DNA from: Alviniconcha marisindica
Taxonomy: Eukaryota; Mollusca; Gastropoda; Provannidae
Assembly: GCA_018857735.1 (NCBI GenBank)
Contig: JABMCL010000428.1
Coordinates: 67,501 to 131,500, forward strand
Direction: 5' to 3'
DNA length: 64,000 bases
Position 1 is the first letter of the stretch. Each line of letters starts with the position of its first letter. The position numbers and the translations under genes are program-made. A model generated the notes under the pieces. That model saw only the letters and a list, made by a program, of their open reading frames with translations, was not told the DNA's origin and searched no databases. Positions 237-35,210 of the stretch are shown piece after piece.

Positions 237-239
<3 letters not shown>

Positions 240-477: not shown

Positions 478-572
478 CCCTGAGCATCGCCAGCAAAGCT
501 CTGGCCACGGTCCTCAGCCAGACCTACGAGGAAGAGTGGACGGACGAGGCTGGGTTCAAGGCATCGTTAGAG
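478..572 (+). CDS. AMPH: Amphiphysin exon: BAR domain, helix 2 region
   Basis: An acceptor tcggcag precedes 478 and a donor GAG|gtactg follows 572. The exon starts with 2 nt of a split codon and ends in phase 0. It encodes [20 protein letters not shown] and a further 11 residues, matching the amphiphysin stretch around the conserved 'EVYEPxW' position. The preceding exon is outside the window. Confidence 0.85.
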
Positions 573-7068: not shown

Positions 7069-7104
<36 letters not shown>

Positions 7105-7395
7105 TTGGGGGGGCTTGTGCTTGTTACCATGTGCAACCCCTAACAGAGACCTGATCTTTAATCTGATGAAGGAGGTCATTCTACAGAAGAAGAAGGCAAA
7201 TCACACACGAGAATGTATGTATGGAAGAAAAGAAAAAAAGATGACTTCTGTGCCTGTACACAGGGAAATGTGTGTGCTGTTTCAGATATCACAATCCCTT
7301 ACACAGACAGCGCAGACTCTGTCCAAAGACTATGTTCAGTTTGTCTACACACCAAAGAGACCACTCAGCAAGTCGCTGTCTGACAAGTAAGAAGC

Positions 7396-7439
<44 letters not shown>

Positions 7440-10100: not shown

Positions 10101-10158
<58 letters not shown>

Positions 10159-13100
10159 AAAATAATTTGTTTGATGTGATGTTAAACAGCTAGGTCAGAT
10201 TTATTTGTCTCTCACTTTTTACATCTAGTTCAGTCCATCAGAAGGTAAAAAAAAAATTATAGACATTTTTTTATCTTTTATTGGTATTTGTTTCTTCGTA
10301 TTTCAGTATTCTTAGAACAGAAAATTCAACATTTTATTATGGGTGAGAGAAAAAGTATACACAACTTTGAACACTTTCATCTCTTTTCTGTAACCTTGAT
10401 GTGCTTTTTGATTTGATTTTCTTCTATTTGCTGTTGTCTGACAATAAGCGTCGTTGGTTAACAAAGCTGTGAGTGTAGTATTTCTTGGGAAAAGGAAAAA
10501 GCAGAATTTGATGAGAGCAATGAGGCCACATTGCCTCTGTTGGCGATTTGCTGTAGCTTGTGTTTGTGTCAGCTTGAGGAGCAGGTCTTTGCTTGGCTAA
10601 TTTAACACAGCTAAAGCCTTAGAATAAAGATTAACAGAGTGTGTGTGTGTGTGCATGTGTGTGTCTGTGTGCATTTGGATGTGCGTGTGACCAAAGTAAA
10701 TTGATGTTGGCGTTAATCCCACGTCATTTGATTTTCTTTGTCATTTTTTGAGAAATAGCTCTTTTTGCAACTTGGCCTTCGCATTTTGTAGCTTATGACG
10801 GTAACAAGTAGTTTGAAGGCATTTTGTGTGCTTTCTTTTTGTATGTTTTTAGTGGGGGTGTTTTGTCTGTGTATGTGTGCGTGTATGTGTGTGTGTGTGT
10901 GACTTGTAGTTTCAACTGTAAAGCTGTTCCAAGATTATTTTAATGTTTTTTAAATATTTTTATAAAGATTTCAGTGAAACCAACAACTTTAATAGTGTTG
11001 TCATTTCTTTAGTGTAGTACATTGTATTCAGCCACTACCAGCGCTGTTCTGCCAATCACATTCACAGAAAAGCAACATCTGTTTGTTGTGTGCATGTTTC
11101 ACACAAATGAATAACATGCCTGTATCTTCTTCTCTCACTGTTTTTATCTGATGTGAACTGTCAGGCACACGTTTTCTTTTCCAAGTGACAACTTCCACAA
11201 GCAGATATTAAACATCATGTATGCCCCACCTTTCTCTGTTTCCAACACCTGTTTGGTTTGCCTGCTCACATATCTTGAGAATCTTTGTGAGGCATCTTGC
11301 ACTGGCAGTGCAAAGTACATGTAAACTCCGTAAGATTCCTCGCTCCGGACTGTCAGTCTCTTGGTTGTTTGTTGGGCATTTTGCCTGCTAGGCTGCCTCA
11401 GCTTTGCAACCGTACATTGTTCTCTTGCTAGTTTGTTTTTGTTGTTGATCACTTTTGTGTAGCACTATTCTCTGCTCTTGAGCAGACTCACTGCGCTCGA
11501 GAGCGGAGCTTTTAGGAAGCTTTGTATAACATCAGACCTCTGTTTCTCTTGTTTATTCTTGTTTCATCTCTCTCTCTCTGTGCGTGTGTGTGCGTGTGCG
11601 TGTGTGTGTGTTTAATTTTTATATGTGTTGTAGAACACTGTAAACTCTAATGCTGTTTTGTCCTGCCTGTGAATGTCTGAAGAAAGGTGCCATTTCCTTC
11701 TGATATTTGCCTAAAATGAGTGTTGTATCTATATCCAGGAACAAAATTCACTTCTGATACTTCTGCAAATATGCATAATTATTTGTAAGCAACTGCTTTA
11801 ATCAATTGTGTGATTGTGCATGTATGTGTTTGTAGTAAAGCAAGGACATCCAAATGGACCTAATGCTACTATCCTTTAGTATTAATGTTTTCACTCTCTA
11901 TCTCTCGCTCTCTCTCTCTCTCTCTCACACACTCTCCCTCTCCCTCACACTTTCTCTCTCGCTCTCTCTTTCTTGTGTTTTCTCTGTGAAAAACTATCAT
12001 AACAGTTTTCAAGATTTTCTGTGTAGATTGAATTCATTGATGTGTAAAGTACATAATTATATTGAAAGTGTTGATTTATTCACCATGCCTTACCTAGATA
12101 CGTATTTCTGGAGGATTCCTCTTCCAGGTAAGCTTGTGGCTTGGAATCGGACTTGATGCGACTGTCTCCCTTTTCTTCTCCTTTTTTTGTTTTTCTTTCT
12201 TTTTTCTTTAAATACACATAGCAGTTAGTTTTTTGTTGGTGAACTGGTGCTTTGGGGGTTAAAGTAATTAGTCCTAATTCCAAGAATTCATGTCAGGACT
12301 CAGAAGAACCATTGGAGTTCAGATCTTTGATGAACATCATGGATTTGCTCTGATAAATTCCATGATTTCTGGCAAACAAGCAACACAGAGCTTGGCAGAG
12401 AGTGAAATTTCACTGCTGGCATTGTAACTTTTACACTTCTTTGTGCAGTGCATTTTCTGTTTGATTGGCTGAAATAAATTAGGAGTCAGTGAAAAATGAG
12501 GGCAGGGCCAACAGGCTTGCTGGTCTGTCTGTCAAATGTCTGTTGGTCAGGAATAATAACACCATGCGTACCTGTTTTGTGAACACGTACCTACAGAGAA
12601 AATTTGTGTGAAACAAACAAAAAAATGGAACACTGACTTGACTCAGTAACAGCTTTGTATGTCAATGCACAGCTTGACTGGATGATGCCGAGAAGACAGT
12701 AAGTAAGTAACTTGGTGTTTTACACCAAGTGGAACACTGACCTTACACAGTGACGGCTTTGTATGTCAAACGCATGGTTTGACTGGATGATGCCGAGAAG
12801 ACAGTAAGTAAGTAACTTGGTGTTTTACACCAAGTGGAACACTGACCTTACACAGTGACGGCTTTGTATGTCAAACGCATGGTTTGACTGGATGATGCCG
12901 AGAAGACGGTAAGTAAGTAACTTGGTGTTTTACGCCCAGTCAACCATTACAGTTATATCAGGGCGAGACAGAGAAGACAGCTTTGTTTAAATAGAAAAGG
13001 TTTCCTAAAATGAGATTATGCCAGAATGTTTTCTGTTCAGTGGATGACCATCAAACGCCTGTATTGAAAGTGTATGTGTGCCCCGCTTCTCTCCGAATCC

Positions 13101-15014
13101 TGCCTGTGTTGAAAATGTGCTTACACCCTGCCCCTCTCCAAATCAGGGAGTGACCTGTTTGCACATGATGCGTCCTCAGGAAGACCCCTTGAGAGCGGTG
13201 TCTTTAAGGATCTCTTTGCCCACCCTGCTTCTGAACAAGGGAAAAGAGCTGGTTCAGGTCATTTGTCCCGTAGCTTTAGGCATTTCCCAGGGAAGCTTTG
13301 CTGCTGTGGATCTCATCCACGCTGGGTTTTTTGTTTGGGGTGTTTTGAAAACATTATTTGTGTGCGTGTGTGTGCGTGAGTGCGTGTGTGTGTTTTTTGG
13401 GGTTTTTTTTTGTGTGTGTGTGTGTGGGTGGGGGGGGGGTCTTTCATTTAATTTTGTTTCATTCGTCTAGTGGGGGGGGGGGGGTCTTTCATTTAATTTT
13501 GTTTCATTCGTCTAGTGCCCAGTGTTGATGAAGAGATGTTCTTATTTGAGTTAGGTGTTGTGAGGAAATAAATTCAGGTGCCCTTGTTGGTGATGCATTT
13601 TAAACATGTGCCTGGAACAACAATCTTAAATAGAATAACTAGCTATTTTAAATGGGTGTCTGGAGCAATAGTTTAATTTTTTTAATTATTTTAAAACTGA
13701 TAAAGGAGGGAAAATGGGGGGGGGGGGGGGGGGGGGTGTGCTGGCTTGAAATCATGTGATTATTGGGCAGTGATTTGGGTGGTTCTCAGCTGTCAAGTAC
13801 ATGTCTCCCAGTACTGTAAAACATCAGTTAATAATTTATAGCTGCTGTTGCACAAAAGGCATGTAGTTCTGGAGACAGACAAAACCCAAGGAAATCAGAA
13901 GATGGTTTGCCAGCTTGTTACAGACATGGCTGCAAAACTTCAGAGGGTTGCACTCAGGTGCAGGCAGAGCCCAGAGAGGTGCATGTCTGTGTGACACACC
14001 GCCCGTTCTTCTTTCAGCAGACCTCAAAAAGCTGGCTGCACAAGACTGGGAGCCGGTGTGGCCCAGCGGTAAGGCGTTAGGCTGGTAAGCAGAGGGACCT
14101 CAATTCGAGTCTGCCTCAGCTCTCCTTTCTCTTCGCAAGTTGTGGTCTGTGACACTGTCTTGTGACTTTGTCCCTCACAATTAATGAAACATTAAAATGG
14201 CTCTCATCACTGCCCACCGTAGAGAAGTCCTTCTGGTGGTGGCAGTGCAGTGGTAGGTATATAATCTTCACCTCCCCCCACCTCCATACCCCCTTCCCCC
14301 CTTCTCTCCATCCTTAATAAGCCTTATGGTTTCTGTGGACGTTAAACACCATGTTTACTGACTGGGAGCAATCTTTGCAGATCCAGTAGTTAAAAAAGAC
14401 AAAAACAAAAAACTGTCGTGTTCTAAAGTAAGTAAACATGGTGCTTAATGTAAAATAAAACCTCTCTTGTTCTAAAGTAAGTAAACAAGGTGCTTAACAT
14501 CCACAGAAACCATGAGTCTTATTAGGGACGTGGAGAAGGGGGGGGGGGATTATATACCTATCGCTACACTGTCACCACCAGAATTATTCCCGCATTAAGA
14601 TGGGCAGCGATGAGAACCATTTTAATGTTTCAGTAGGAAGAGAGGGACAAAGTCCACAAACCACAAGCTTTTTGAAGAGAAAGGAGAGCCTAGGTTTCAA
14701 GGTTTTATTGATCTTTTTGCCCCTGGGGGCTAGAAAGCCGAAGCAGTATCGAACCGAGGTCCTTCCGCTTACCAGCCTAACGCCTTACCGCTAGGCCAAA
14801 CCGGCTCACCAACTCTCTCGTTCCGCTCGCTCCACGGACTTTAATCGTTCACCGCGCTGTTGCCGTACGTGCCTGTGTGCAGCAGCGACGAGCACCACGT
14901 GAACGGCGAGTCCAGTCTGCAGGGAGGAACCGACTCCCCAGCCTCCAGCGACAGTCCTGCTGCCACCCCCACCACCCCTTCCGCCGTGGCTCGTCCCCCT
15001 GAAGGTGGGGCGGG

Positions 15015-15045
<31 letters not shown>

Positions 15046-18000
15046 ATTGATGAATACCCTGAAGGTAGGCACAGTTGTGTGGGACAGCGGGGTGGTGGCT
15101 GTGGGAAGGTGGAGTTAATCCAAGGTTCCCAGGGTCCTTACAGGTGCTTATAAAGTACTTACAAATTGAATTTGCCGAGTAAGGCCTTACAAGTCCTTAT
15201 ATTTGCTTCACGGTTCTTACAAGTCTAGCTAATACTAAAAATGCACATAGGTAGTTATAAAAGCCTCTCATTTTTTCCAAGTCAGTGACACTGGATGGTT
15301 TCACACATTTACTGAATTTGGAAATCATTCGGACATAGGTTAAGATGATGTCTGAAGTAGATGATGCCTTCCTCCATTTTCATTTAGATCACGTGCAGCC
15401 AAAATCATGGTTGCAAGATTACGTGATAACTTCCGGGTCAGCCATTTTAATGCAAAATTCGAACTGTGAAAGAACCTGAGCTAACAGCAAAGACTTTGAG
15501 AAAAAGTTTATTCCAAGACCACTGGCTAAAGGACATTGCATACCAGGAGTGGGTTCTGAAAGATAAGCTGGACAAACACTGCTCGAGGCGTGGCATGCGA
15601 AATTCAGCTAGTTTTTTGTGTTCCTTACTGTTGTGATGGACCTTACAAAATCTAATACTGGTCCTTACAAGTCCTTATAAGGTCTTTATTCGGCTCTAGT
15701 CCAAGTCCCTGGGAACCACGATTTAAATCGTACAGTTGTTGAAGGCCTTTGAAAGTTGTAGGGGGAAGTGGTCAGCTGTTTTCAATAATAATTCTAATAA
15801 TTATATAATATATAAAGATGTGCTTGTACAGCTCAAACCTCTAATATAAAATAATGCTCGTTGCTTTGTGCTGAAAGCAAATTTAACACCCAAGTTGATT
15901 AAAATAGTGTTTGTTGTTTTGTACTGAAAGCAAGTTTAACATCCAGGTTGAGACATTGCAAGTAAAAAAAAAACAGTAACAGCAATGATTGTAAGCAGTT
16001 GAGACTGCAGAAAGCCAACACACATGTGCATGCACCCATGTATGCACATGTGCGTGCGTGCACACACACACACATGCACACACAGATGCATGCATGAACA
16101 CACACATGCGTACACACACACATTCCAGTCAACTGAAATCATTTAAGAAGACTGAGGGGACAGAGACATAGTAGCAGCAGTAGGTTTTAAACAGATGTCT
16201 TCAGAGTGGTTTTAAATGCAATGGTTGACTGAATGTGTCAGATTTCACAAGGCAGAGAATTCTAAACAGAAGGAGCAGCACAGGAAAAATGAGTGCTGTC
16301 CAAATGCTTTGGTCCTAACATGTAGAGTGCATAGAGTTCTTGAGTTAGAGGAGGAGCGGAGCTGTCATGACGGAGAGTAAGGAGATCAGACAGATAGGAG
16401 GGAAAAAGAAGGCAAGATGTTGACAACTCTTACTCTGTACTCCATACACGGATAGGCAGCCAGCGAAGAGTCCCGTGGAGGGATGAAACATCTAAAGGCC
16501 TTGAGAGGCTGTAAAAAAATGAGTAACTCAACCAAAGTCATTACAAACTGGGAGCGAACATGAACTCAAGACTTTGAGAGTGTGGGGAGAAGTGAGTAAA
16601 CTCAACCAAAGTTATTAAAAACTGGGAGCAATCTTTGCAGATCCAGTTGTGAAAATAACACCTGTCTTGTACTGCTCATTCCACAGACCACCTGTACGGC
16701 AATCAGGATGTGGTAATAGCAGCTGCCAAGGTCAACGGAGACACTGAGAAGGTCAAGGAGGTGAGCTCATTTGTACAGTGCTGGTACATACCTGTGAGGT
16801 CGTTGATGTCATGCTACTGATGTGTGTGGGTTTTTGTTTTGTGGTTGTTTTTTAAACAGGGGTTCTTTTTCATTTCGCTGGTGTTAAGATTGCTGAACCA
16901 AAGAAAAGGTGGATTTATTTTATTTTATCCAGTGGATATTAAGTAATGTATGTGTGACCAACACCTCAACACAAGCACATGCATGAACAGGTGAACAGGT
17001 AAACCTGCAAAAATCCCTGTGGCAAAGACCTGTCTGTGATACTGTGGGAACCCTTGTGTCATTTCTGTGTTTAGCATGGTGCAGAGACAGCGGCTGGACA
17101 AACTCGGATAATAGACAAGAGTGAAACTGTGCTGTGTTGAGAGAGGTGGTGGGTTACATGTGGCTGTTGTGGCTGTTGTTGCTTTCCATCCAGTTCCAGA
17201 ATGCCATGGCTCATCCCGAGCCAGGTGAGATTTTGTTTGTTTGTGTATATTTACATGCAGTTGTTTCCTTGCACATGCTCTCTGCGGGAATCATAGTTTA
17301 CGTTAACTCGCGTAGAGCGTCTTATTTCCAACTGAGGGCGTTGAAGCTGGCGATGACAAAACAAGAGCTGCTTCTGTTTCCCTCTACCCAGATTTTACAA
17401 CAGCAGGAGCTGATGAACACCTCTGCCGCGAAAGACGGAGGCACCCTGGGCTTTGCGAAAGGCTCTGCCGGTGGGGACAGTTCTGCCCTGGCAGACGATT
17501 ATACCACAGTAAGCGCTGATAAAACCTCCCACCTGGCTTCTGCCAGCACCCCTGCACCACCAGTCTCTTCCCCCAACACCGATTCCCACCCTAGTGCACT
17601 GTGCTTAACCCCCGTCCCTGTTGCGTCGTCTGCACAGCGTGTGTCCTCTACCCCTCCAGGTATCGTTTCACAGCCTCTTCCCCCTGCGCCTTCAGGAGAG
17701 AGGAAGATCAGGGAAGAGGTGGTAGAGAAAATGCCAGGGGAGAACCCTCCCGCCGTTTTGGCTGAGTGGGTAAAATCGCCAACGAATGAAGGAGAGAAGC
17801 TGGGGGAACCCCCTTGTCGCGCCGACCGTGCTCCAGAAGGTGCCGGAGCATCTTCGGTGAGTGTCGGGGGCTTCATCGACAGCTCCTACCAGCAGGAGAT
17901 TGACGCAGCTCTGTCTGAAGACCCAGCCAGCTCCCAGGAACCCAGCACCCAGGGAGAGACGCTTGCTCCGTCTTCACTTCCACCAACCCACCCCCCTGAC

Positions 18001-21000
18001 AGGTCCGTGAACGAGGATGAGCTTGAGGACGGACTGCTGTTTGCGGATGAAAACCCAGCGACACCAGAGGAGAGCCAGCTGGTCGTTAAGGCCCAGCAGG
18101 CTGACTCTGATGGCATTGTGTTCGTGGACAAGCGGGACGGAGCGGCTTCGAACGAGCAGGGTCCGGCGTCTGGCAACGCTTCAGACTTTGAAACCCTCGC
18201 AGACGCTCCAGGCAGAGTACAAGAAAAGAACGCAGAATCGGCCGAGAGCCTAACCCAGCCGCAGCGGCAGGTGGGCGATGTCACCGTCTCCGCGGACAGC
18301 CTGCACCACTCCGTGCCCAAGAGCGAAGGTGGCCAGAGCGAGAGCGCACTGTCCACAGCGGGCGGCTCTGAAGTCAACACAGGGGGCGCGGCCAGTCAAG
18401 AGGATTCCGCGGTCAGCAGCGACGCTTTGGTCGCCAGCTCCTTCTCCAACTTCTCCACGAGCCTCCACAGCCCCCTGGGCGAAGTCTACGCAGACATCAC
18501 GTTCTCCAGCCAGGAAGACCTGGTCCACAACAGCGCCAGTGAGAGCGAGAGGAACGGAGGTTCGGCATCGCCCACCAACGTTTGCAAAAGCTCTGAAGTC
18601 TGTGCAGACCCCGGTGGTGTGATCTCTGCAGAAGAGAGGAGCATCATCTCGGTTCTGGAGCAAGCCATCAGGAGCGAAGCATCCAACGCTGCAGCCACTG
18701 AAACTGACCCAGCGGTGGGGAGAGGGGAGCACAGGCGCCCACATTCCGTCCCACTGTCTCCAGTGAAAGACTCCGTGCCGGGGTCCAAGCGTCTGAATGC
18801 TTCATCCACTGAGATCACTGAAAAGCAGGGCAGTGAGGAGGACGCTGACTGCTATGAAAACGTCAGTAGCAAGAGCGTTTGTCACACTCACGGGGATGTT
18901 CCGGGGCTGGACCAAAAGCTGGCAGAAGACAAAGCCAAAGAGCTAAATATCCCACTTCCACTAGAGAGCGAAAAGAGCAGCAACCTAACACAGCCAGATG
19001 GCAAAACCCCAGAGAAGGATAAAGATGCTGGGGTTCAGATCCCCCCGACCACCGCCTCAGATCCCTCCAACAGGTCCGGCGACTCTGGTCCTCACGGCGT
19101 GGATCCTGGTTCCGGCCCAGCTGGTGCCCGCACCTCCGACCCGCCCCCTCATCCCTTGTCCTCTAGGGACCAGAACACCACCAGTGTGATCCACGGACCT
19201 CCAGTGTTCCTCGTCAAGCCTTACAACCTTCCTCAGCACGGGGAGAAAAGGGTGGAGAGGGAGCCCCCGCCTGAGGACAAGGGCAGCAGCTGTGGCGGCA
19301 GCGGCGGCGAAAAGAGCAAGAAAAGTAGTCTCAGTCACAGGGGGTTTGAGATGTTCAAGTCCATGCTGCACATCTCCAGCGTGGCCAAGCACGCAGGCGA
19401 AAAGAGCGGCGCCAAGAACGCGAAAAGCCTGGACTTTGGCAGCCAGCAGAAGAGCCCGGAGAAGAGCAAGAACTGGTCAGAGGACTCCAAGAAGAGGAAG
19501 AGGTCCTCCCCGGAGAAGTCGCTGGGCTCTGACACGAAGAGTTCCAAGAGGCGGTCTTCCACACCCTCGTCCACCACCTCCCACTCGCAAGAGGCCTTGA
19601 AGAAAGAGAAGAAGGCCGAAACCTTGCCCAAACTAAAACCACCCAAAAGCGGGGAGGGCGTGAGCTCCTCCCGCCAAGCGTGCCATTCGGCGGACGCAAG
19701 CCCCAAGCGCCGGGGAGCACCATCTAGTTCTCCCAGTCACGCTGCCGGCGATGTCACTGGAGAGGGCCAGAGGCAGTCAGGTCCAACTGACAGAAGCCCC
19801 AAAAAGGGAGCGTCGTCAGGTTGCAAAGGAGTGAAGTTTTCCACTCGGGCTGCTGGTGACGACACTGCAAGAGACCGGGCAGTGTCAGGTACTACAGCTG
19901 GCACCAGCCTGAAACAGGGCGGAGCGTTGTCTGGTGCTAGAAGAGCAAAGTCTCCAGGCCAGGCTGCGGGTGACGTCACTGTTACAGATCGGGCAGCGTC
20001 AGGCACAACTGGCACCAGCCCTAAACAAGGAGGAGCGTTGTCTGGTGCTGGAAGAGCAAAGTCACTGGGACAGGCTGCTGGTGACGTCACTGTGAAAAGC
20101 CAGGCTGTCTCGGAGACAACTGGCACCGGCCCTAAACAGGGAGAAGTGTTGTCTGGTGCCAAAAGAGCAAAGTCTCCAGGCCAGGCTGCTGGTGACGTCA
20201 CTGTAACAGATCGGGCAGTGTCAGGTACAACTGGCACCAGCCCTAAACAAGAAGGAGCGTTGTCAGATGCCAAAAGAGCAAAGTCTCCAGGCCAGGCTGC
20301 TGGTGATGTCACTGCAAAAAACCAGGCAGTGTCAGGTATAACTGGCACCAGCCCTAAACAGGGAGGAGCATTGTCTGGTGCTAGAAGAGCAAAGTCACCG
20401 GGACAGGCTGCTGGTGACGTCACTGCGAAAAGCCAGGCTGTCTCGACTACAACTGGCACCAGCCCTAAACAGGCTGGTTCCAGGAGAGCGAAGTCCTCTG
20501 GCGAGGCTGCAGGCGGGGTCACAGGAGGCAACCAGATGGGATTAGGCACCTACCAGCCTCCTCCTCGACCCTCACCAGCCTCTCTGCAAGCTTCCATTGA
20601 CCCAGGCTGCGAGACCAGGCCGGTGCCTCCGGCACCCGAGGCTGGCATCATCCCACCCCCCTCGAAGCCCAGCCTGACCAAGCCACCGGCCACTGCCCCG
20701 CGCCCTCCGCCGGCGTCGGGCCCGAACCCGGAAGCTAGGCCTTGCGGTCCAGGCCTCAACCCCTTGGCCCCACCTTTCACCATGCGCTCCTCACCGGCTG
20801 GGCCCAGGCCTAGTCCGGGTCCAGGCTTCAGCCTCCACTCAGACTTTCTTCCCGCTTCAACCGTGACCGGACCCGGTCCGGGTCCCGGGTCACTGCCACA
20901 TCCTCCCGATCCCTCGCAAGTGAGGCTGACGCTGCCGTACACCAAGGTTGGCACCGCCGGAGAGATGGGCAGCGCTTGTGGGGACCAGCAGCAGCAGCAA

Positions 21001-24000
21001 CAGCAGCAACACTTCCTTTCCATGCCCTTCTCCATGGTGAGCACAGACTCCATGGTGGGGATCCAAGGGGAGGAGGGGTGGCCAGTCCCGCCCCAGTCAC
21101 TCGGCAGTGCTGCCGAGAGCAGGACATCGTTTCTGACATCGGCACTCAGACACACCTTTTTCGGAAGGCGCGCTCGCCCGAGCCTGCAGCAGAACTCCCA
21201 GGAAGCTTTCCCCGGGGCACCAGTCGCCCAGCATCACTCGCGCATCCCTCTGGCGCCGCCCGTTTTCCTGCAGGCACCCTACAGGACACTCCAGGCTAAT
21301 CTGGACGGTGCGGGATTCCAGCACGGTGGAGACGGCGCCTTGGGGGCTCAGTCTCTGCTGCTTGGTGCCATGCAGAAAAGCTTGAAAGAGGAGATGGAAA
21401 ACAGGGCTGTGGCTGGGAAGACCGTCATGGACGCGCGCGGCAAGGGAGAAAAAGTGTCGGAGGGCGGGGAGGGGGATGCCGTCAGACAGGTGGCGCCCCC
21501 TGTGGCGGTGAAGGAGCAGGTGCTGGGTGAAAGCAAAAACGTCGCTGGCATTCAGAAGCCTCCGAAAAACTCCAAGAGCGGAGAGTCGCAAAAGCACATG
21601 GAGGCTACGCCTCTGCCCAAAGCGACCGCCACCCCAGCTTCTGCCCCTCCCTTTGACCTGAACCTGGCTCGGGAAGCTTGGCGAACAGCCTGGAGGACCA
21701 GCAACGTGGCCGACACAGAGCCCTCTGAAAGCTCTTTGGCCGAGGATGCCAGGCGGCCCGCAGGTCAGGCCCGTGTCCCCATCTTGAGCGCGGAGCCGGG
21801 GGCTGCCGCCAACAGGGTGCCCCAGGGTGATGGACACGGGGCTGCCACAGTCCAGGGTCCAGCTGACGAGGTTCACCCCTACCAGAACGTCCCAGAACCA
21901 CAGTGCAGAACTGTCGGGAAAGAGTCGCACGAGGTGGGGAAGTCCAAGGGTGCTGGGGGAGTGGGCGGAGGAGAGGCGGAGGACGGCTATGTCAACATGC
22001 GAGTGCAGAACCCTGCGAAGAAGAAGGGCAGTTATGTTGATATGCAGCTGCTGAAGGAAGCTCTGGCCCAGCAGGCTTCGGCCGTGGACCCCGGTGTGCC
22101 CCAGCCACCGGTGTTGAACCAAGCTGTCCCTGACGCCTGTCCGGCAGCGGGGAAGCCAGGAGATCGTCTAGAACCTGAGCTGCAGCCTGAAGCTCGATTG
22201 ACGGTGGCTGAAGGAACGGTTTCCTGTGCCAGCGGTATTGTCACAGATTCGAAAGACCGCGCCACTCAACCTCTCTTTGAGTCCCCTTCTGAGCGCCAGC
22301 CCGAGTCGCTGTCGGTTCGTGATGAGAATGTTGCCAAGTCGGATGAATCGCCGTGGAATGTTGAAGGGTTGGACAAACCTGTGGAATCAGACAACCAAGC
22401 ACTCGACAGGGAAGGTGTGGGGAAATGTGCCGAGTCTGACAATAAAGAACAAAACCTTTCAGATCTGAAGAACCCTATGGCAGCAGGGGATAACCCACAG
22501 AACTCTGAAAGGTTTGAGGACCTTGCAGCATCAGGTGATAAACCGCAGAACGTTGTAGGGTTGAAGAACACTGCCGAGTCAGACAATCAGGCACCTGATG
22601 TTGAGGCTGCTGGCTGTCCAGCGGAAAAAGCAAGGGAGAAACGAGACAAGCAGGACACACTCGCAGCCAGGCAGAACGCAGACACAGATGTTCTCCATCC
22701 TTCCAGCATTGCTCACACTGTTGGCCACCTTGCGGCAGGAGATTCGCTGCTTTCCCGAGACAGGGAAACAGGTCCCATTCCACCCAGGCCGCCTGAGAAA
22801 TCTGAAGAACAGGGTGCTGATCTTGAGGAGAGCTGTAGCCCATCCAGAGAAGCTTATCCCATCAACTCACCCACTGAAACTGCGTCTGAGGGACTGAGAT
22901 CTGTCGACGACACCAGCCTGAAGAAAACACAGTTTGTGGAGTTGAGTTACCATGTGTCTGACGGTTTTGAAACGCTTAGAGATGAGGACACTGTCCGGAG
23001 CTACCACGTCTCTGGTGGGTTTAAGATGGTGACAGAGGGAGACAGCCTCAACAACGCTGAAAGCAGCGCTCACGTTCCAACCACCAATGCTTGTGATACA
23101 GTTGCTTCAACTCAGGAGATCAGTGAGCCTCCTGGCAGTCAGTCAAGCATAGGGGCTCTTGCACAGGAGGAGTACCGTGCAGAGTGCAGAATATTTGCTA
23201 GCACGTTGGTACCCCAGGCACAAGCCAGTCGTGGCAGCAACGGCGCTGACATCACATCTGCATCCACTGGCCAGACGTCCCACCAGTCTCTGGGAAACAA
23301 TGAATCCAGTGGCATCAACCTGGCGTCTGATGCCCACTCGGTGGATGTCACTCCCTGCGACAGCGTCATCAGCGCCCACTGGGAAGCCTGCCTGCAGAGC
23401 AGCAGCACGGACACTGCCTCAGCCAACCCGTCCTCGGGCGTCAGCCAGCAGCCCGCGGACACCGTCGCCTCCAACGAAGTGGTGACGTCCTGCGACAGCG
23501 GAATCAGCGCCGGGGAACTCACCCAAAGCGCCACTGACGTGCTGAACCAGAACATCGAAGTCACCCAGAGCGGCACCAGCGTGTCGAGCCTGGTGGTTGA
23601 AGTTGCCCAGATTGCGGCAACAGGGGTCCTGTCAGCGGCAGGCACTTCTCTGCCAGGGCAGCTGCACGCCTGCAGCGGATTTGTGGACCTCACCAGCCAG
23701 GACCTGCCGCCGTGTTCTTCAGAGTGTCAACCTCGGGATGAACAGGAAGTAGCCTTGCAAGCCACAGCAAGCACTAGCAGCACATTTGGTCAGGACAGTG
23801 ACACGGGCAGTAAGGAGATGGCGGAGAAGGTGGACGTTGAGCAGAAAGAGGTAGCATCAGCTGCCAGCCACTGCCAAGAACTGGCAACCTCAGACCCTGG
23901 TGCCATTCTGACAGGCTGTGAGGTCATGTCGGAGACAGCAACCAGAGACCCTGATACCAGCCTGGCGCGCAGCGAGATCCAGCCAGAGACTGCGACCTCG

Positions 24001-27000
24001 GACCCTCACACCAGTATGACACGCCACGAGATCACCTCAGAGGCTGCTTTTACTGAGGGGGACCAGGCGTATCCACCTGTAAGGGTTTTTGTAGACCAGC
24101 TCATCCAGCGAGCTGCGCAGGTCCTGCCCAGCACTTCTCCAGGACAGGGGGAAGACGGGGAGGCAAGAAAGGAGGAGGAGGAAGAAGCCAGCAGCACAGA
24201 AATAGAGAAGGAAAAAAGCGACCAAGGCATGAAGGACACAAAGACGGAAGAAGCGTCCCATGATGACGAGAGAACAGAGAGGGGAGGAGGGGAGTGTGGC
24301 TCAGCAACAGAAAAGGAACTGGCCGTTAATGGCGACGCAAGCACAGAGACGGAAGGAACCGTTAAGGGTTGCAGCACAGTCGCAGAAAAGGGAGAAACCA
24401 TTTGTGGTGGTAAGGGAGGAACCATTAATGATGGTGATCCAGTGACAGAAAAGGGAGAAACCATTTGTGGTGGTAAGGGAGGAACCATTAATGATGGCGA
24501 TCCAATGACAGAGAAAGGAGAAGCCATTTATGATGGTGATGCAGTCACAAGGAAGGAAAGAACCATTGATGCTGGTGATACAATAACAGAGAAGGAAGAA
24601 GCCATTTATGGTGGTGATGCAGTCACAAGGAAGGGAGGAACCATTGATGATGGTGATACAGTAACAGAGAGGGAAGAAACCATTATTGATGGTGATCCAA
24701 TCACGGAAAGGAAAGAATCCATTTATTATGGTGGTGCAGTCACAAATAAGGTAGGAACCATTGGTGATGGTGATACAATAACAGAGAAGGAAGAAACCAT
24801 TTATGAAGGTGATCCAATCACAGAAAAGGAAGAAACCACTGATGATGGTGGTCCAGTCATAGAACAGGAAAAAACTGTTAACGATGGTGATGTAGTCACA
24901 GAGAAAGAAGGAGTCATAATTAGTGATGGTGATACAGGCACAGAAAAAGAAGAAACCATGGATAGTGGTGAGGCAGAAACAAGAAAGGAACAAACTGTTA
25001 ATGCCGGTGACACAAGAACTGAAAAGGAAGAAGCCATTGATCTTGGGGAGGCAGAAGCAGCTGAGTCTAGCCCCATTGGTGCCAGGGACACAGAACCAGA
25101 GAGGGAAGAAGTCAGTGGCACAGAACCAGAGACGGAAGAAGTCAGGGACAGAGATCCAGAGAGGAAAGAAGTCAGGGACACAGAACCAGAGAGGGAAGAA
25201 GTCAGTGACACAGAACCAGAGAAGGAAGAAGTCAGGGACACAGAACCAGAGAGGGAAGAAGTCAGTGACACAGAACCAGAGAAGGAAGAAGTCCATGACA
25301 CAGGAACAGAGAAGGAAGAAGTCGGTGACACAGAACCAGAGAGGGAAGAAGTTGGTGACACAGAACCAGAGAGGGAAGAAGTCAGTGACACAGAACCAGA
25401 GAGGGAAGAAGTCGGTGACACAGGAACAGAGAAGGAAGAAGCCATTGATCTTGGTGAGACAAAAGTACTGGAGCCTAACCCCATTAGTGCCAGTGACACA
25501 GAACCAGAGAGGGAAGAAGTCGGTGACACAGGAACAGAGAACAAAGAAGATGGTGACACAGGAACAGAGAAGGAAGAAGTTAGTGACAGAGGAACACAGA
25601 AGGAAGAAGCCATTGATCTTGGTGAGACAGAAGTACTGGAGTCTAGTCCCATTAGTGCCAATGACACAGAACCAGAGAAGGCTGAAGTCAGTGACACAAG
25701 AACAGAGAAGGAAGAAGTCAGTGACACAGGAACGGAGAAGGAAGAAGTCAGTGACACAGGACCAGAGAGGGAAGAAGTCGGTGACACAGGAACAGAGAAG
25801 GAAGAAGCCATTGATCTTGATGAGACAAGAGTGAGGGAGAATAGGCCCATCGATGCTGGTGACACAGGAACAGAGAGGAAAGAAGCCATTGATCTCGGAG
25901 AGACAAAAGCAGAGGATATACCCGCTAATGCTGGTGACACAAGAACAGAAAAAGAAACTATTAGTGATTGTAATGATTTGAAAGCAGAGAAGGAACAAAC
26001 CATTAATGATGGTGACATAAGAACAGAAAAGGAATGGGATACAAGAACAGATAAAGAAACTATTAATGATGGTAATGATTTGAAAGCAGAGAAGGAAGAA
26101 GCCATTAACGATGGTGAGACAAGGACAGAGGATGCGGAAAGCATCGGCAGTGGTGACACAGAAGCAGACAATGGAGAAGCTGTTATGGATGACACAAACG
26201 CAGAGAAGGAAGAAGCCATTATTGATGGTGACACAAACGCAGAGAAGGAAGAAGCCATTATTGATGGTGACACAAACGCAGAGAAGGAAGAAGCCATTAA
26301 TGATGGTGACACAAACGCAGAGAAGGAAGAAGCCATTAATGATGGTGACACAAACGCAGAGAAGGAAGAAGCCATTATTGATGGTGACACAAACGCAGAG
26401 AAGGAAGAAGCCATTATTGATGGTGACACAAACGCAGAGAAGGAAGAAGCCATTATTGATGGTGACACAAACGCAGAGAAGGAAGAAGCCATTATTGATG
26501 GTGACACAAACGCAGAGAAGGAAGAAGCCATTAATGATGGTGACACAAACGCAGAGAAGGAAGAAGCCATTATTGATGGTGACACAAACGCAGAGAAGGA
26601 AGAAGCCATTAATGATGGTGACACAAACGCAGAGCGGGAAGAAGCCGTCAATGATGGTGACACAAGCACAGAAAAGGAAGAAGCCATTTATGATGTGGAC
26701 TCTAACACAGAGAAGGAAGAAGCCATTATTGATGGTGACACAAGAATAGATAAGGAAGAAGCCACTGGTTGTGATGACGCAAGAATAGCAGAGCAGAAAG
26801 CCATTGAAACTGATGATGACGCGAGAATAGAGAAGGGAGAAGCCATTTGTGGTGATAACACAGGAACAGAGAAGGAGGAAGCCATTATAAATGATGTTGA
26901 CACAAGAACAGAGAAGGATGAAGCCATTGAAGATGGTGACACAAGCACAGAGAAGGAAGAAGCCATAGCTGGTGATGCAAGAACAGAGAGGGCAGAAGCC

Positions 27001-30000
27001 ATTACTGATGTTGGTGCAAGAGCAGAGAGGGCAGAAGCCACTACTGATGTTGGTGCAAGAGCAGAGAGGGCAGAAGCCATTACTGATGTTGATGCAAGAA
27101 CAGAGAGGGCAGAAGCCACTACTGATGTTGGTGCAAGAGCAGAGAGGGCAGAAGCCATTACTGATGGTGATGCAAGAACAGAGAGGGCAGAAGCCACTAC
27201 TGATGTTGATGCAAGAACAGAGAGGGCAGAAGCCACTACTGATGGTGATGCAAGAACAGAGAGGGCAGAAGCCATTACTGATGGTGATGCAAGAACAGAG
27301 AGGGCAGAAGCCACTACTGATGGTGATGCAAGAACAGAGAGGGCAGAAGCCATTACTGATGGTGAGACAAGAACAGAGAGGGCAGAAGCCATTACTGATG
27401 TTGATGCAAGAATAGAGAGGGCAGAAGCCACTACTGATGGTGAGACAAGAACAGAGAGGGCAGAAGCCACTACTGATGGTGATGCAAGAACAGAGAAAGA
27501 AGAAGCCACTGGTGGTGGTGGCACAAGAACAGAGAAGGCAGAGCCTGTCGAAGGCTGTGAAGCAAAAACTGAGAAGGAAGAAGCCATTGGTGCCGGCGAC
27601 ACAGGAGTAAAGGACGATGAAGCCGTATGTGATGCTGAAACTAAGCAAAAGGTAAAGGCCGATACAGGCAGCAGCACCAGAAAAGAGGATCAAGATGCCA
27701 GGAAAGCTGATGACACGAGAAACCGGATGGATGACGAGACAAGGGAAGAGAAGGAAGATGCCAGTATTGATAATGGTCAGAGGAAAAATGAGGAAGAAAT
27801 CGATAAAGGTGATGAAACAAGAGAAGAGAAGGAAGCAGCCAGTGTTGATCACGGTCAGAAGAAAGATGAGGGAGAAGTGAAGAAAGATGATGAAACGAGA
27901 GAAGAGAAGAATGGCGCCCGAGTTGAGAGTGGTCAGAGAAGAGGTGAGGAAGAAGTCGATATCGGTACAGATTATGACTCTAAAGAAGAGAAGAGAGACT
28001 TTTATGAAGACAGTGACAGAGGGAAAGAGACAACAGGACTGCCGAATAAAATATCTGGGGAGGTAGAAATGAACATGAGCAGTGATGCAGGAGAAGAACT
28101 GGAAGAAGTGTTGGGAGAGAGGGATGCCAGAAACAGGCAGGAAGATGCGTGCAGGGATGACGAACTTCGGGGAAACAGTTCCAACAAGGACGATGACAGG
28201 AGAAAAGGGAAAGAAGAGATGCTGAAAGGTCACAGCACGCAAAAGGAGGAGGGGGAAATTAGCAAAGATTGGAATGCAATGCACGAAGAAGTGTCCGAGG
28301 AGAGTGAGGCGGGGAAGGAGAAGGCGGATTTGTGCGAGAAGGATGGCGCTGGGGAGCCCAGTAACAGCCAACCTGAAGTACCGCTGCTTCTCGCTACAAC
28401 CATGCAACACAACAAGCAGTTGCACCTAGACGGAAACTTGGCACCAACAGCAGGAACAACCCCACAGCAAGAGGATGTGTCCAGAGAGACTGTCCTGAAC
28501 CAGCAACCAGGGTTAGAGCATTGTGGAGATACCGTAAGAGTCGCGGTAGGAGAACAGGTCACGGAACAAGCACAAGCTACGCTCACAGATGAAGAAAAAC
28601 ATCATGCAGCTGCAACAGAAGGAAGTCTCCATCCCAGCACCGGTGAGGCAACCAGCACAGATCTGGAGGACAAAGTGATTGCTGGGAAGGACGGAAACAA
28701 GTGCGTCCACCAAAACGTTGATGCAGCATCCGGCACAGAGGTGGAGGGCAAGGCGCACGTTGGGCTGGAAAGAAACGAAAACCTCTGCCAAAACTCCAGT
28801 GCAGCAACCGTCGCTGAACTGAAGGACAAGGAGCACATCAGGAGGGAGGAAAGTTCCGCCGTGGAGCATGTCGGTTCAGATCAGGAGGGGTCGGAGGGGT
28901 TTGAGGTGGTGTTTCACGAGGAAGAAGGAGGAGGCTTGGGTCTGCTGCCTGAGACACTGGGCATGAAAGAAGAGGAAGCGGAGTGCAGAGTAAGCATGGC
29001 TGTGTGGGACCCTGTAGAGCATCAGGAAGGAGAGGTGAATTTGTTGGAGTTGCCTTGACCAGTTAGCTCAACAGCACCTTTGCTGTTGTTGTTTTTGTGA
29101 GTTGCAAGTTTTTTTTGTTTTCGTTTTTAGCTTTGAATTGAAGAGACTTTGCTGTTGCCCATCGCCCTGATATAACCGTACTGGTTGACTGGGTGTAAAA
29201 CACCGACTTACTTGCTTACTTACTTTGTCATTGCCCTGAGCTGTTGCTGTTTTGTTGATTGATTTGCCGTTGACATTCTTTTTCCTGGTTTATTTATTGA
29301 TGGATTGATTTCAGGATGAGGAAAAGCCATCAAAGCCGGTTTAGGATCAGTGGCCGCAGTAGCCATTTTGAAGAGAATTGCGAGCCAGTTGTAATTTGGT
29401 CATGTGAACTAACGAGCCGAAACCTGCCCAACTGGGCACGGAATGTTTGCCTAGAATGACCGTTGACCAGACTATTGTTTGTTGCACCTTTCCAACAGAA
29501 CTGTTGATCAGCAGTTTGTGTGGTCATTTCAGCCAGGCTTAAATGTTACACATGCTTCAAGACATTACATAACAGATCTATGTGTCACACAGCTTTTTTT
29601 CAAGCAGCTGTGATATCAGCCAGTGAATAATGATGCCAGTGAGATCACACAGATACAGCTGTGAATGCACGCACTCATGTGGACACGCACATTAACACAA
29701 CGTGCATTTATGCTTGTAAGAACTTGCGAATATATATAATTATATATATATACTTTTTATACTTGTTTTTTCGGTCGCCCTGCTATAACCGTCATGGTTG
29801 ACTGGGCATATAAAAACGAACAACGGTGTTTATTTATTTTGATTTCTGCTTTCACTGATGTTGTGTCTAGAGCTACATTAGACAGCTTGATAAAACATCT
29901 CCATTTTTCATTGAATAATGTTAGAGTAAGGCTTAAATGGAACAAACAACCTCTTGACATGCAAATTGGAGGTGTACCCTTTCCATTTAACCTCCTTGAT

Positions 30001-33000
30001 GTCCGTTCTTGACCAACTGATGGCATTGTCACTATCAAAATGGCTCGCGGTTGGAACTTTGGAGTAAATTTTCAGGGGACATCACTCAGTGTGGTTGCCT
30101 CAAGTGTTCCCTCAGTAAGAGCTACCAGTTAAGCGGTCACTGTATTATTCTGTGTCTGTGCCCCAGATACACATTTCACTGCTGACTCATTTTGCACAAC
30201 TATTGAGTGGAGTTTGCTTCATCTATGCAATTCCTGTCATTTCTTGCATGGCAATTTTGTTGTTTGGTTTTTTAATTTGTTGTTGCTGTTTTTTTCAGTT
30301 TTATTTGTTTCATGTTCTGCACCAAATGTTGACACAAATTGTGTTTATTGCTTACTTAGTTCCTATGTTGTTGTTTTAAGTACTATAAATCAGATTTGAT
30401 CAGTCATTAATTTCTATGGGGGGGAGAGGGGGGGGAACCATTTACTGAAGAATATTAAAATGATTTCTTGCAACAAATATGTCTTAAAAATGTAAAAGCA
30501 CTAGAAACAGAAAAATATTTAGGATGGATATGTGAATCAGTTTGTTTAGGCAGAACTTGATAACAAAGGAGTTCATCCAAATAGGGTTCTACTGAATACT
30601 AGATGCATCTTTACTTTTATAGTAGACAAGAGGGCAGGGAGTGGAGTATGTCGGAATGTGTGTGTGTATGTGTGTGTGCATGCGTATGTGTGTGTGTGTG
30701 TGTGTGTGCACGTGTGCACATACACACTCTGGGGGAAGAGGGGTTGTACTGAAAAACTTTGTTTTTTTATGCTATCAACTACAGTGGTTATGTTAGGGCA
30801 GAACAGAGTATCTATTGTCAGATTATAATGTACTTTTCAGATTGTAATGTACTGGTCAGATTGTTTTCACAATTGTAGATGGACATGGGATGCATTTTTA
30901 TTTTGCTGCCTTCACTGTCTTTATTCACCATTCTGTGTCAGGTGTGATCAGAATAAAGCATTATTTTGTGAAACTGAGACTGCAATGAAGCTGACAGAGG
31001 CAGCTAACTCTACGCAAACGCAGGGAAACGGCTGCACAGGCAGAAGTCTCACCATGCAAAGCCTGGAGAGTTGCAGCTGCAGCTCGGTGAAGGAAAGCAC
31101 AGAAAAATCCCTTGACCACTTTCACTGTGTTTCAGGTGAAGGCTTTGTCTGTGGGCTCAAGCAAAGACGGCATGGACTCAGTGCCAGTAACCAACAACGT
31201 CTACGAGGAGCCGCCGGGCAATGGGGCAGAGGACAGCGGGGATGAGGGCACTTACCAGACACCCCCATCCAACAAGCCCGTCCATGAAGCTCCGCCTTCT
31301 ACACTCTACCAGGTTAGTAGTTAGCTGATCACTTTTATATAACGCTAGTCTCTCGAAGACTCACTGCACACGCATGTGATTCTACATGAGTGAATGGCTT
31401 TTTATAGTACGTTTTTGAATATCCACCGAAGTGGTGTACTTACAGTGCTGGCATGGCTGGTGCCACATGAAACTGCTGCCGTCTCGGCGTGTTCTGTGTA
31501 CACCATACAACCATTGTACCAGTGTCACTTCATGCAAAGCCACATAGGCAAGGTGCGTGCATATTTAGCTGTAACCTGCCACCTGCACTTTTGGCAGAAT
31601 GACCAGGGTCTTTTACGTGCTGTTGCGGTAATTGGGGGTGGAACTGGATACCGAAATAAGAGTCAGCACAGAAAGTTGACCCGGAGAAGAAAATTATCCT
31701 GCAGCTCCTGCAGGGATTCAGACCTGCAACCTTTCGATCACGAGTCCAGCGCTCTAACCACTGGACCCTGTGACGGATGCTTTGGATGTGTGTGGTCTCT
31801 CAGTCTAGCAGAGAGAGGAGAAGGCAGAGGCCAGGGTATTTGTGACGGATGCTTTGGTTACGTATGGTTTGTGTGTGTTTTCAGGTGGAGGCCACCCATA
31901 CCTACGCTGGTGAGGACGTCGACGAGCTGTCCTTCGAGCCGGGCGACATCATCTACGTTGTACCTTTTGACAATGAAGAGGAACAGGTAGGCACCGAGTG
32001 TAGTCACAGACATTTACTCTGCTTGGACGGGCATAAAAATTTAACAAATCTTGTAATGCTGTGGTATTATCTGTGTAAGTTCAGCCAGCGGTTGCTCAAT
32101 CAAACCGTAACTCTTTGTAGTCCAGATACGAATTTATTCGTGCTGAAGTGTTGGTCCCTGTGGACCAGGTATGGGTATGTCTGTACTCACCACCTTCCTA
32201 AAGTGCAACAGTCCTCTCAGTAGCGTTCTCACCCAAAGCTGTAATACTGGTAACTTGAGCCTGTGTGTTTGGCAAAGATTGCTTGCCATGTATTTCTCAG
32301 AAGAATTGGTCTATTTTGAGGGGGTGGGGGGGGGGGGGGGGGTAGTGGCAGGAGACATGTTTTAGGAGAGCAGATTGATGTGGTATGAGAAAGACTGTTG
32401 TAGGAAAAAGACTGGTGTTGTAGGAGAGATGTTTTAGGAGAGAAAACATCACTGGCATTGTAGGAGAGATGTTTTAGGAGAGGAAACTGGTGTGGAACAG
32501 ACGACTTATGACAGATGTGGTAAGAGAGAAGACTAATGTGATATTGATGTGATAGGAGATAAGACTGTTGTAGGAGAGGAGACTGATGTAGTAGGAGAGA
32601 AAACTGATGTGGTAGGAGAGAAGACTGATGTGGTATAGGAGAGAAAACTGATGTGGTAAGAGAGAAGACTGATGTGGTAGGAGAAAAGACTAATGTGGCA
32701 AGAGAGGAGACTGATGTGGTAAGAGAGAAGACTGATGTGGTAAGAGAGGAGACTGATGTGGTAAGAGAAAAGACTAATGTGGCAAGAGAGGAGACTGATG
32801 TGGTAAGAGAGGAGACTGATGTGGTAGAACGGACTAATGTGGCAAGAGAGGAGACTGATGTGGCAGGACAGGAGACTAATGTGGCAGGACAGAAGACTAA
32901 TGTGGCAGGACAGAAGACTGGTGTTGTACGAGAGAAGACTGATGTTGTACGAGAGAAGACTGATGTTGCAGGACTCGAGGACTGATTGATGTTATGAGAG

Positions 33001-35170: not shown

Positions 35171-35210
<40 letters not shown>

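What the first reader, a model, noticed from the sequence alone, without database searches (positions are those of the whole stretch)
17392..28989. An 11.6 kb in-frame cassette exon inside an amphiphysin gene
Seen: an open frame of nearly 12 kb lies between two amphiphysin exons. It has a good acceptor at 17391 and a good donor at 28989, both exactly at codon boundaries (phase 0-0), matching the phases of the flanking exons at 16760 and 31136. Established: amphiphysins carry optional inserts between BAR and SH3, but known ones are short; ankyrin genes gain neuron-specific giant exons of comparable size. Inference: this gene can make a normal protein of about 470 aa and a giant form of about 4,300 aa with a long disordered acidic spacer between the membrane-binding and SH3 ends.
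Basis: partly seen in the sequence, partly recalled or inferred. Interest (0 to 1): 0.9.

Follow-up and report, generated by a model that had tools for sequence, protein, structure and literature searches.

The report
Giant cassette exon in gastropod amphiphysin
A gene for the membrane-bending protein amphiphysin, likely from a snail, contains one unbroken 11.6 kb open stretch that is likely spliced in or out, so that the gene would make either an ordinary protein or one roughly ten times larger; matching giant gene models exist in other gastropods.

Summary
A frame of 3,977 codons (17125-29058) contains an 11,598-nt exon, 17392-28989, with AG and GT borders and phase 0-0. It lies between amphiphysin exons, and the in-window exons translate without a stop with it (4,269 aa) or without it (403 aa). 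The cassette reading gains outside support. In Littorina saxatilis a 470-aa model is identical, 470 of 470 residues, to a 3,182-aa BAR-SH3 model except for a 13-aa and a 2,699-aa insert, the latter at this junction. The window's exon is homologous to the giant inserts of Littorina, Nucella and Batillaria. Heterobranch gastropods have a giant insert in the same slot without detectable similarity. The product is predicted to be mostly disordered, Ser/Glu-rich like ankyrin giant exons, and has an excess of SH2-docking-like tyrosine motifs. No paper listed in my searches describes it. RNA could not be examined: transcription and function are inferred. Likely mechanism: optional inclusion of a very long disordered spacer that crowds a BAR-coated membrane, moves the SH3 end outward and adds docking sites.

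The parts
478..572 (+). BAR exon ([11 protein letters not shown]...FKASLE)
   Evidence: tblastn with Littorina P0006, E 1e-7; borders
3237..3332 (+). BAR exon ([10 protein letters not shown]...FPALK)
   Evidence: tblastn E 2e-11
4413..4520 (+). BAR exon ([15 protein letters not shown]...KIAK)
   Evidence: Pfam BAR E 0.0016, below Pfam's cut-off for this single exon; BIN1 structure 2fic E 8e-9; tblastn E 4e-16
5454..5539 (+). BAR exon ([14 protein letters not shown]...)
   Evidence: tblastn E 4e-11
6558..6633 (+). BAR exon ([17 protein letters not shown]...)
   Evidence: tblastn E 4e-12
7286..7386 (+). end of BAR / start of linker ([10 protein letters not shown]...SLSD)
   Evidence: tblastn E 3e-11
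10307..10342 (+). 36-nt likely optional linker exon ([12 protein letters not shown])
   Evidence: resembles the 13-aa stretch ([13 protein letters not shown]) by which Littorina's giant model also differs from its short one
14883..15064 (+). linker exon ([11 protein letters not shown]...)
   Evidence: tblastn E 2e-17
16687..16760 (+). linker exon directly upstream of the giant exon ([25 protein letters not shown]), ends in phase 0
   Evidence: tblastn E 2e-8
17392..28989 (+). giant exon, 11,598 nt, 3,866 codons, phase 0-0
17392..17508 (+). possible 'mini' use of the giant exon (39 codons) through an in-frame internal donor aca|GTAAGC
   Evidence: Babylonia isoform X2 has a 46-aa insert at this slot that resembles the exon's start; the donor itself is not outstanding (rank 130 of 535 GT in the exon)
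18478..18519 (+). [14 protein letters not shown] block; GEVY and FSSQED are unchanged in 8 of 8 aligned sequences
21880..22044 (+). cluster of three SH2-docking-like tyrosine motifs: YQNV, YVNM, YVDM (residues 1497, 1533, 1548)
24383..27961 (+). acidic tandem-repeat region inside the exon (reported periods 24, 30, 39, 60, 63, 78, 102, 117, 168, 198 nt, all multiples of 3)
31136..31312 (+). exon directly downstream (VKALSV...NNVYEEPPG...STLYQ), starts in phase 0
   Evidence: tblastn E 3e-21
31885..31986 (+). SH3 exon, first part
   Evidence: BIN1 SH3 structure 1muz E 6e-5, tblastn E 4e-18
33135..33215 (+). SH3 exon, last part, with stop codon
   Evidence: tblastn E 2e-11

Best explanation
The open frame at 17392-28989 is an 11,598-nt phase 0-0 exon of an amphiphysin gene that is likely an optional cassette, and when included it is predicted to put about 3,870 mostly disordered residues between the BAR and SH3 ends. 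Shown: the frame, its splice borders and phases, its homology to giant inserts in other gastropods, and an exactly matching pair of short and giant gene models in Littorina. Predicted: disorder with a few short helices. Inferred: the giant form docks on curved membrane through the BAR dimer; its chain, about ten times the 380-residue disordered part of human amphiphysin 1, adds steric and electrostatic pressure that sharpens curvature preference or favours fission; it lets the SH3 end capture partners farther from the coat; and its conserved tyrosine motifs dock SH2 adaptors when phosphorylated. Splicing would thus switch one gene between a compact coat protein and a long-reach scaffold, as giant exons do in ankyrin genes.
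For: Frame and phases. Littorina short and giant models identical over 470 of 470 shared residues, with the 2,699-aa insert at the same junction. Homology of the exon's first 2,320 residues to giant inserts of Littorina (36% over 651 aa, E 1e-78), Nucella (E 2e-36) and Batillaria (E 1e-16). Four unnamed records hold a single frame of 3,395-3,703 codons, 73-78% identical. GEVY and FSSQED unchanged in 8 of 8 aligned sequences. Charge-hydropathy on the disordered side for 12 of 12 spacers; AlphaFold2 mean pLDDT 38.8 and 38.9, with 625 of 700 and 455 of 500 residues under 50. YxN motifs 3 against 0.8 in shuffles, YxxM 2 against 0.2; Y kept at 10 of 14 positions aligned to Littorina against 38% over all residues. 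Full-length human amphiphysin 1 prefers 20-nm over 200-nm vesicles 25-fold, its N-BAR alone 11-fold (passages of PMC6175956).
Against: No RNA could be examined; the Littorina pair are gene models. In 5 of 5 segments of the acidic repeat arrays tested, units differ mostly by amino-acid changes (synonymous to non-synonymous 1:10, 3:33, 0:23, 2:29, 11:51), so no purifying selection shows there; only the 111-nt array upstream has 26:21. Clathrin-box, DPF/W and FxDxF motifs are absent from the window's exon. For Pomacea, a caenogastropod, only a 447-aa form was seen. The SH2-docking reading is a motif match: Nucella lacks YxxM and Batillaria lacks YxN. The frame runs on past the donor to a stop at 29058 and is open for 39 codons or more before the acceptor, and both tails are open in the four unnamed records, so an unspliced or terminal use cannot be excluded from sequence alone. 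Low pLDDT with 8-row alignments is weak evidence of disorder.
Confidence: 0.72

Rival explanations
1. The long frame is always included in this species (a constitutive giant exon, or one whose skipping is only splicing noise), so there is no regulated switch.
For: Nucella's giant appears as a single model without an isoform label; the exon's splice sites look as good as the others.
Against: Littorina has both forms as models; two listed Babylonia models lack the giant part and a 353-aa Batillaria model holds only part of the insert; short forms are listed for many animals, though that search could only list proteins of roughly 220-705 residues; phases allow clean skipping.
Confidence: 0.15
2. 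The frame is an alternative 3' terminal exon or a nested transcript: read from its own start or from 16760 and ending at the stop at 29058 with an intronic poly(A) site, giving a BAR protein with a giant tail and no SH3.
For: Frame open past the donor to 29058 and ending ...HQEGEVNLL(E/A)LP in 4 of 4 unnamed records; an AATAAA at 30952; Elysia's giant model has BAR but no SH3.
Against: 8 of the 9 giant rows carry an SH3 match as well as BAR; comparing translations by eye, the intron upstream of the acceptor has changed frame between the window and P0003 whereas the exon keeps it; AATAAA occurs 42 times in the window, so one is no evidence.
Confidence: 0.08
3. The frame is a pseudogene, retrocopy or repeat expansion that is open by chance or by repeat structure.
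For: About 1,190 of the 3,866 codons are tandem repeats with periods divisible by three, which stay open once open.
Against: The first 2,320 residues are homologous to inserts of spliced giant amphiphysin models; chance runs reach 360 codons at most; the window and four unnamed records keep the frame.
Confidence: 0.02

Closest known systems
Amphiphysin / BIN1 (N-BAR and SH3) with alternatively spliced middle inserts
   Same: BAR exons, linker motifs ([17 protein letters not shown]) and SH3 exons; optional inserts between BAR and SH3
   Different: Middle region of human amphiphysin 1 is about 380 residues (PMC6175956, passages); here about 3,870 residues in one exon, without clathrin/AP2 motifs
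Giant exons of ankyrin genes (ANK2, ANK3, Drosophila Ank2)
   Same: One very long exon in a membrane adaptor gene, alternative use, Ser/Glu-rich composition (S+E 21.8% here, 20.0-24.2% over the ten spacers measured; about 25% in ankyrins), repeat arrays, fast loss of sequence homology at a shared site (passages of PMC5135030)
   Different: Different gene family; reported bilaterian-wide for ankyrins but found here only in caenogastropod and heterobranch gastropods; neuronal use is not shown here
Littorina saxatilis 'streptococcal hemagglutinin-like isoform X2' (P0006)
   Same: Homologous giant form with BAR, giant insert at the same junction and SH3
   Different: Carries a database name that hides the amphiphysin; insert 2,699 instead of 3,866 residues
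Heterobranch giant models (Bulinus, Biomphalaria, Plakobranchus, Elysia)
   Same: In three of the four (Elysia's has no SH3), about 2,490-2,890 residues between the linker motif and the SH3; the inserts are homologous in the 4 of 4 pairs compared
   Different: No detectable similarity to the caenogastropod spacer (profile comparison E 0.4 and 0.65)

Membership tests
Amphiphysin/BIN1 | BAR domain | tested here: met
   Six exons match Littorina's BAR part; BIN1 BAR 2fic E 8.1e-9
Amphiphysin/BIN1 | C-terminal SH3 domain | tested here: met
   1muz E 5.7e-5; last exon [26 protein letters not shown]
Amphiphysin/BIN1 | N-terminal amphipathic helix of the N-BAR | not testable with these tools
   The first exon(s) lie upstream of the window and the own-genome search did not complete; Littorina's model starts MAEANKSGILAKAQKRLSRTKTKVLQ
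Amphiphysin/BIN1 | Clathrin/AP2-binding motifs in the middle region (vertebrate neuronal forms; recalled, not a feature of all members) | tested here: not met
   0 clathrin boxes, 0 DPF/W, 0 FxDxF in the window's exon; that invertebrate members lack this feature is recalled
Giant-exon cassette as in ankyrins (works like) | Single exon of several kb within an otherwise ordinary gene | tested here: met
   11,598 nt; ankyrin long exons average 8,103 bp (passage)
Giant-exon cassette as in ankyrins (works like) | Alternative inclusion | tested here: inconclusive
   Phases allow it and Littorina has both models, but no RNA was seen
Giant-exon cassette as in ankyrins (works like) | Composition: S+E about 25%; S,E,T,D,K,P above 55% | tested here: inconclusive
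   S+E 21.8% and six residues 49.9% here (20.0-24.2% and 46.4-51.6% over ten spacers), against 15.8% and 41.1% in the window's BAR part: same direction, below the ankyrin values
Giant-exon cassette as in ankyrins (works like) | Neuronal expression | not testable with these tools
   No RNA data
Ankyrin | Ankyrin repeats, ZU5, UPA, death domain | tested here: not met
   No such Pfam match in the giant exon or in the three + frames of 1-18002 and 29001-38002

The most novel reading that the evidence does not exclude
Amphiphysin is a second gene family, after ankyrin, in which a giant cassette exon turns a membrane adaptor into a giant: gastropods splice one gene three ways (none, a 39-codon mini piece, the whole 3,866 codons), the giant exon having been gained twice, or rewritten beyond recognition, in the same slot of caenogastropods and heterobranchs, and the giant form acts as a phosphotyrosine-docking polymer brush on curved membranes.
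Probability: 0.3. Interest if true: 0.88.

Novelty: new variant of a known kind. Interest (0 to 1): 0.76.

Why it matters
Whether the length of a disordered chain tunes what a BAR protein does to membranes is studied mainly with laboratory constructs; here is a natural gene that appears able to make the same BAR and SH3 ends with about 80 residues (Littorina's short model) or about 3,950 residues (window, giant form) between the linker motif and the SH3. It would be a second case of the giant-exon solution known from ankyrins, with a similar composition bias, which makes the open question of what that bias is for testable by comparison. And it shows that giant amphiphysins sit in public databases under names that hide them.

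Tried and rejected
Independent gene or nested transcript: considered and set low (see rivals). The upstream reading '[10 protein letters not shown]...' in frame before the acceptor looks like a signal peptide but is not kept in frame in P0003 (by eye).

Folded domain in the exon: Pfam gave only a match at E 2.7; two AlphaFold2 jobs gave low confidence with a few helices, so no fold search was made.

'Residue I1 invariant': dropped, because Nucella and Batillaria differ at the junction and the global alignment probably misplaced that column.

Homology of caenogastropod and heterobranch spacers: hhalign found none (prob 0.15 and 0.08%, E 0.4 and 0.65). BLAST hits between the window and Biomphalaria lie mostly in the repeat arrays and were not counted. 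For one search I used 6 caenogastropod rows (window, P0002, P0004, P0006, P0008, P0009; hhalign kept 5 of 6) and 4 heterobranch rows (P0007, P0010, P0012, P0014), leaving out P0003, P0005, P0011, P0013; repeat arrays were cut from the window, P0010 and P0014, and the intended cut in P0002 and P0004 failed.

Selection within repeats: no purifying signal in the acidic arrays, reported as evidence against. The script compared neighbouring units in fixed register and two of the segments overlap (26990-27150), so the counts are rough.

Internal mini donor at 17509: its own score is unremarkable (rank 130 of 535, from a matrix of only 11 donors). The Babylonia insert is not better than shuffles against the whole window exon (367 of 500 reach it), though it is against the exon's first 45 residues (0 of 2,000), against Nucella's whole giant insert (2 of 500) and against its first 45 residues (0 of 2,000).

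PxxP 26 against 13.8 in shuffles, LIR-like 9 against 4.9, dynamin-like 0 against 1.2, NPF 0 against 0.1 in the window's exon: not followed further.

Species: not identified; the best named short-form hit is Littorina saxatilis, 71%.

Literature: 'amphiphysin'+'giant exon' 0 papers; 'giant exon'+'mollus' 0; 'amphiphysin'+'gastropod' 2, listing only; two or more of six terms 605 papers, 20 listed; 'amphiphysin'+'Aplysia' 9, 8 listed; two or more of BIN1, amphiphysin, snail 660, 10 listed. Of PMC9527923, on BIN1 evolution, I saw 12 passages, none on such an exon. 'Not described' covers only this library and these listings.
Full report
WHAT IS THERE. The + strand of the window is open from 17125 to 29058 (3,977 codons); the next longest frame is a 1,374-codon reverse frame that overlaps the repeats of the same exon. 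Between a consensus acceptor at 17391/17392 and a donor at 28989/28990 lie exactly 3,866 codons. In 200 random sequences of 64 kb with the exon's own trinucleotide statistics the longest open run was 360 codons.

The surrounding gene is an amphiphysin. tblastn with a Littorina relative and inspection of borders place six BAR exons (478-7386), three linker exons (10307-10342, 14883-15064, 16687-16760), the giant exon, one linker exon (31136-31312) and two SH3 exons (31885-31986, 33135-33215). Their translations join without a stop with the giant exon (4,269 residues) and without it (403 residues). BAR and SH3 match solved structures of BIN1 (2fic E 8.1e-9; 1muz E 5.7e-5). By Littorina's model 69 N-terminal residues lie before the window.

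RELATIVES OF THE GIANT EXON. A search with the exon itself gave five proteins among 1,758 scored candidates: four unnamed single-frame proteins of 3,395-3,703 residues (73-78% identity) and a 3,182-residue Littorina saxatilis protein named 'streptococcal hemagglutinin-like isoform X2' that carries BAR and SH3. A search with that protein's BAR part, restricted by the tool to proteins of 0.55-1.75 times its length, gave nine rows at E 1e-5 among 7,989 scored candidates (a capped set): Littorina (the query), Nucella, Batillaria (two), Bulinus, Biomphalaria (two), Plakobranchus, Elysia. Littorina, Nucella and Batillaria are Caenogastropoda, Bulinus and Plakobranchus Heterobranchia; for Biomphalaria and Elysia the placement is recalled. 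No bivalve, cephalopod or annelid is among the nine, whereas the first 120 of 3,400 hits of the short-form search, which could only show proteins of about 220-705 residues, include six bivalve and two annelid rows. Giants longer than about 5,570 or shorter than about 1,750 residues could not have been seen.

THE CASSETTE. Littorina also has a 470-residue model. Aligned to the giant model it is identical at 470 of 470 positions, and the giant model has two extra stretches: 13 residues that resemble the window's 36-nt exon at 10307, and 2,699 residues starting ILEEEE... after DKPKE. In the window the giant exon starts ILQQQ... after KVKE. The insert thus sits at the same junction in two genera. 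These are gene models; I saw no reads.

A POSSIBLE THIRD FORM. Babylonia areolata isoform X2 has a 46-residue insert in this slot that isoform X6 lacks. Its sequence resembles the start of Nucella's giant insert (2 of 500 shuffles reach its score against the whole insert; 0 of 2,000 against the first 45 residues) and of the window's exon (0 of 2,000 against the first 45 residues, but 367 of 500 against the whole low-complexity exon). It ends PSALADDSLA; the window reads [10 protein letters not shown] and has an in-frame GTAAGC right there (17509). That would be a 39-codon mini use of the giant exon, as 270-kDa ankyrin-G uses the first part of its giant exon (passage of PMC5422562). The donor scores only 130th of 535 GT in the exon, so this is a lead. 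A 353-aa Batillaria model also holds only part of the insert.

CONSERVATION INSIDE THE EXON. The first 2,320 residues against Littorina's insert: 36% over 651 residues (E 1e-78), 33% over 836 (E 3e-57), 33% over 261 (E 2e-20); Nucella E 2e-36; Batillaria E 1e-16. Blocks seen in that comparison: [14 protein letters not shown], [15 protein letters not shown], AEExSIISxLEQAI, [19 protein letters not shown], AREAWRxAW, SDGFET. The exon's tail EGSEGFEV is also shared with Littorina and Nucella. The repeat region keeps frame in the window and the four unnamed records although their total lengths differ, and its units show no purifying selection. Tyrosine is kept at 10 of 14 aligned positions in Littorina against 38% over all residues, and at 6 of 10 against 32% in Nucella. 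YxN and YxxM motifs exceed shuffles (3 against 0.8; 2 against 0.2) and recur as YENV/YQNV/YVNM/YVDM in the window and 4 of 4 unnamed records, YENI/YENI/YINM/YVDM in Littorina, YENF/YENI/YENV in Nucella, and YVKM/YVDM in Batillaria. That YxN and YxxM are docking motifs of Grb2 and p85 SH2 domains is recalled.

THE SAME SLOT IN HETEROBRANCHS. Bulinus, Biomphalaria and Plakobranchus carry 2,488, 2,891 and 2,849 residues between a YxN motif upstream and the start of the SH3 downstream. These inserts are homologous to each other (Bulinus-Biomphalaria 38% over 2,170 residues; Bulinus-Plakobranchus E 1e-15) but not detectably to the caenogastropod ones. Shared origin with loss of similarity, or two gains, cannot be separated. 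Ankyrin giant exons behave the same way: Jegla and colleagues found no significant homology even between exons at one site, but a shared composition with Ser and Glu at about 25% (passages of PMC5135030). Here S+E is 21.8% in the window and 20.0-24.2% over the ten spacers measured, against 15.8% in the window's BAR part.

STRUCTURE. Charge-hydropathy puts 12 of 12 spacers on the disordered side (repeat arrays were cut from two of them). AlphaFold2 with 8-sequence alignments gave mean pLDDT 38.8 for residues 1-700 and 38.9 for residues 1101-1600; the more confident pieces are short helices, chiefly 413-435 ([17 protein letters not shown]...) and 1423-1438 ([16 protein letters not shown]). The alignments are shallow, so low confidence is weak evidence on its own. 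Acidity is concentrated in residues 2331-3866 (D+E 31.8%), against 13.4% before.

HOW IT LIKELY WORKS (inferred). A BAR dimer would hold two chains of about 3,950 residues each from linker motif to SH3. Human amphiphysin 1, with about 380 disordered residues, prefers 20-nm over 200-nm vesicles 25-fold where its N-BAR alone does so 11-fold (PMC6175956, passages), and steric pressure among its disordered domains is reported to play a role in fission (Snead et al. 2019 as cited in PMC6914677, passages; the paper itself was not read). A tenfold longer chain should strengthen both effects, space the coat and move the SH3 end outward; contour length would be about 1.4 micrometres at roughly 0.36 nm per residue (recalled value). 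Conserved short helices and tyrosine motifs argue against an inert spacer and for docking.

LIMITS. No RNA data; species unknown; own-genome search did not complete; giant models of other species unverified (Bulinus shows a duplicated BAR part; Elysia lacks SH3).

Noticed in passing
window 4507-5430: The intron after BAR exon 4413-4520 begins with about 30 copies of a 30-nt unit that repeats the exon's own 3' end together with its 5' splice site (AAG|GTAACT); 19 AAGGTA sites, of which 4580 is in frame before the first in-frame stop, so an expanded array of candidate donors that could lengthen the BAR part by some 20 residues.
   Followed up: partly
window about 9438-9486: A second copy of the small linker exon ([15 protein letters not shown], resembling [12 protein letters not shown] at 10307-10342); Nucella's model contains both kinds, so possibly a duplicated optional exon.
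   Followed up: partly
window 29315-29338: A possible 24-nt phase 0-0 microexon (DEEKPSKP) with a fair acceptor and a weak donor (gtttag) between the giant exon and the next exon.
   Followed up: no
window 46438-57346: Matches to a TCP-1/CCT chaperonin subunit on the - strand downstream of the amphiphysin gene (Pfam PF00118 in several exon-sized pieces).
   Followed up: no
window 58892-59143: A + strand match to sperm microtubule inner protein 11 (PF22593, E 7.5e-9).
   Followed up: no
P0006 (Littorina saxatilis): A giant amphiphysin carries the database name 'streptococcal hemagglutinin-like', probably a composition-driven misnaming.
   Followed up: yes
P0014 (Biomphalaria glabrata): The heterobranch giant spacer has its own repeat array of a different unit (NSQYESVEAVLAP), so repeat arrays probably arose separately in the same slot.
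   Followed up: partly
window 5741-5820: An inverted repeat with a further partial copy (TGTACATAAACTCCACCAGAGGTAC ... TACCTCTGGTGGAGTTTATGTACC) in the intron after 5539, unexplained.
   Followed up: no
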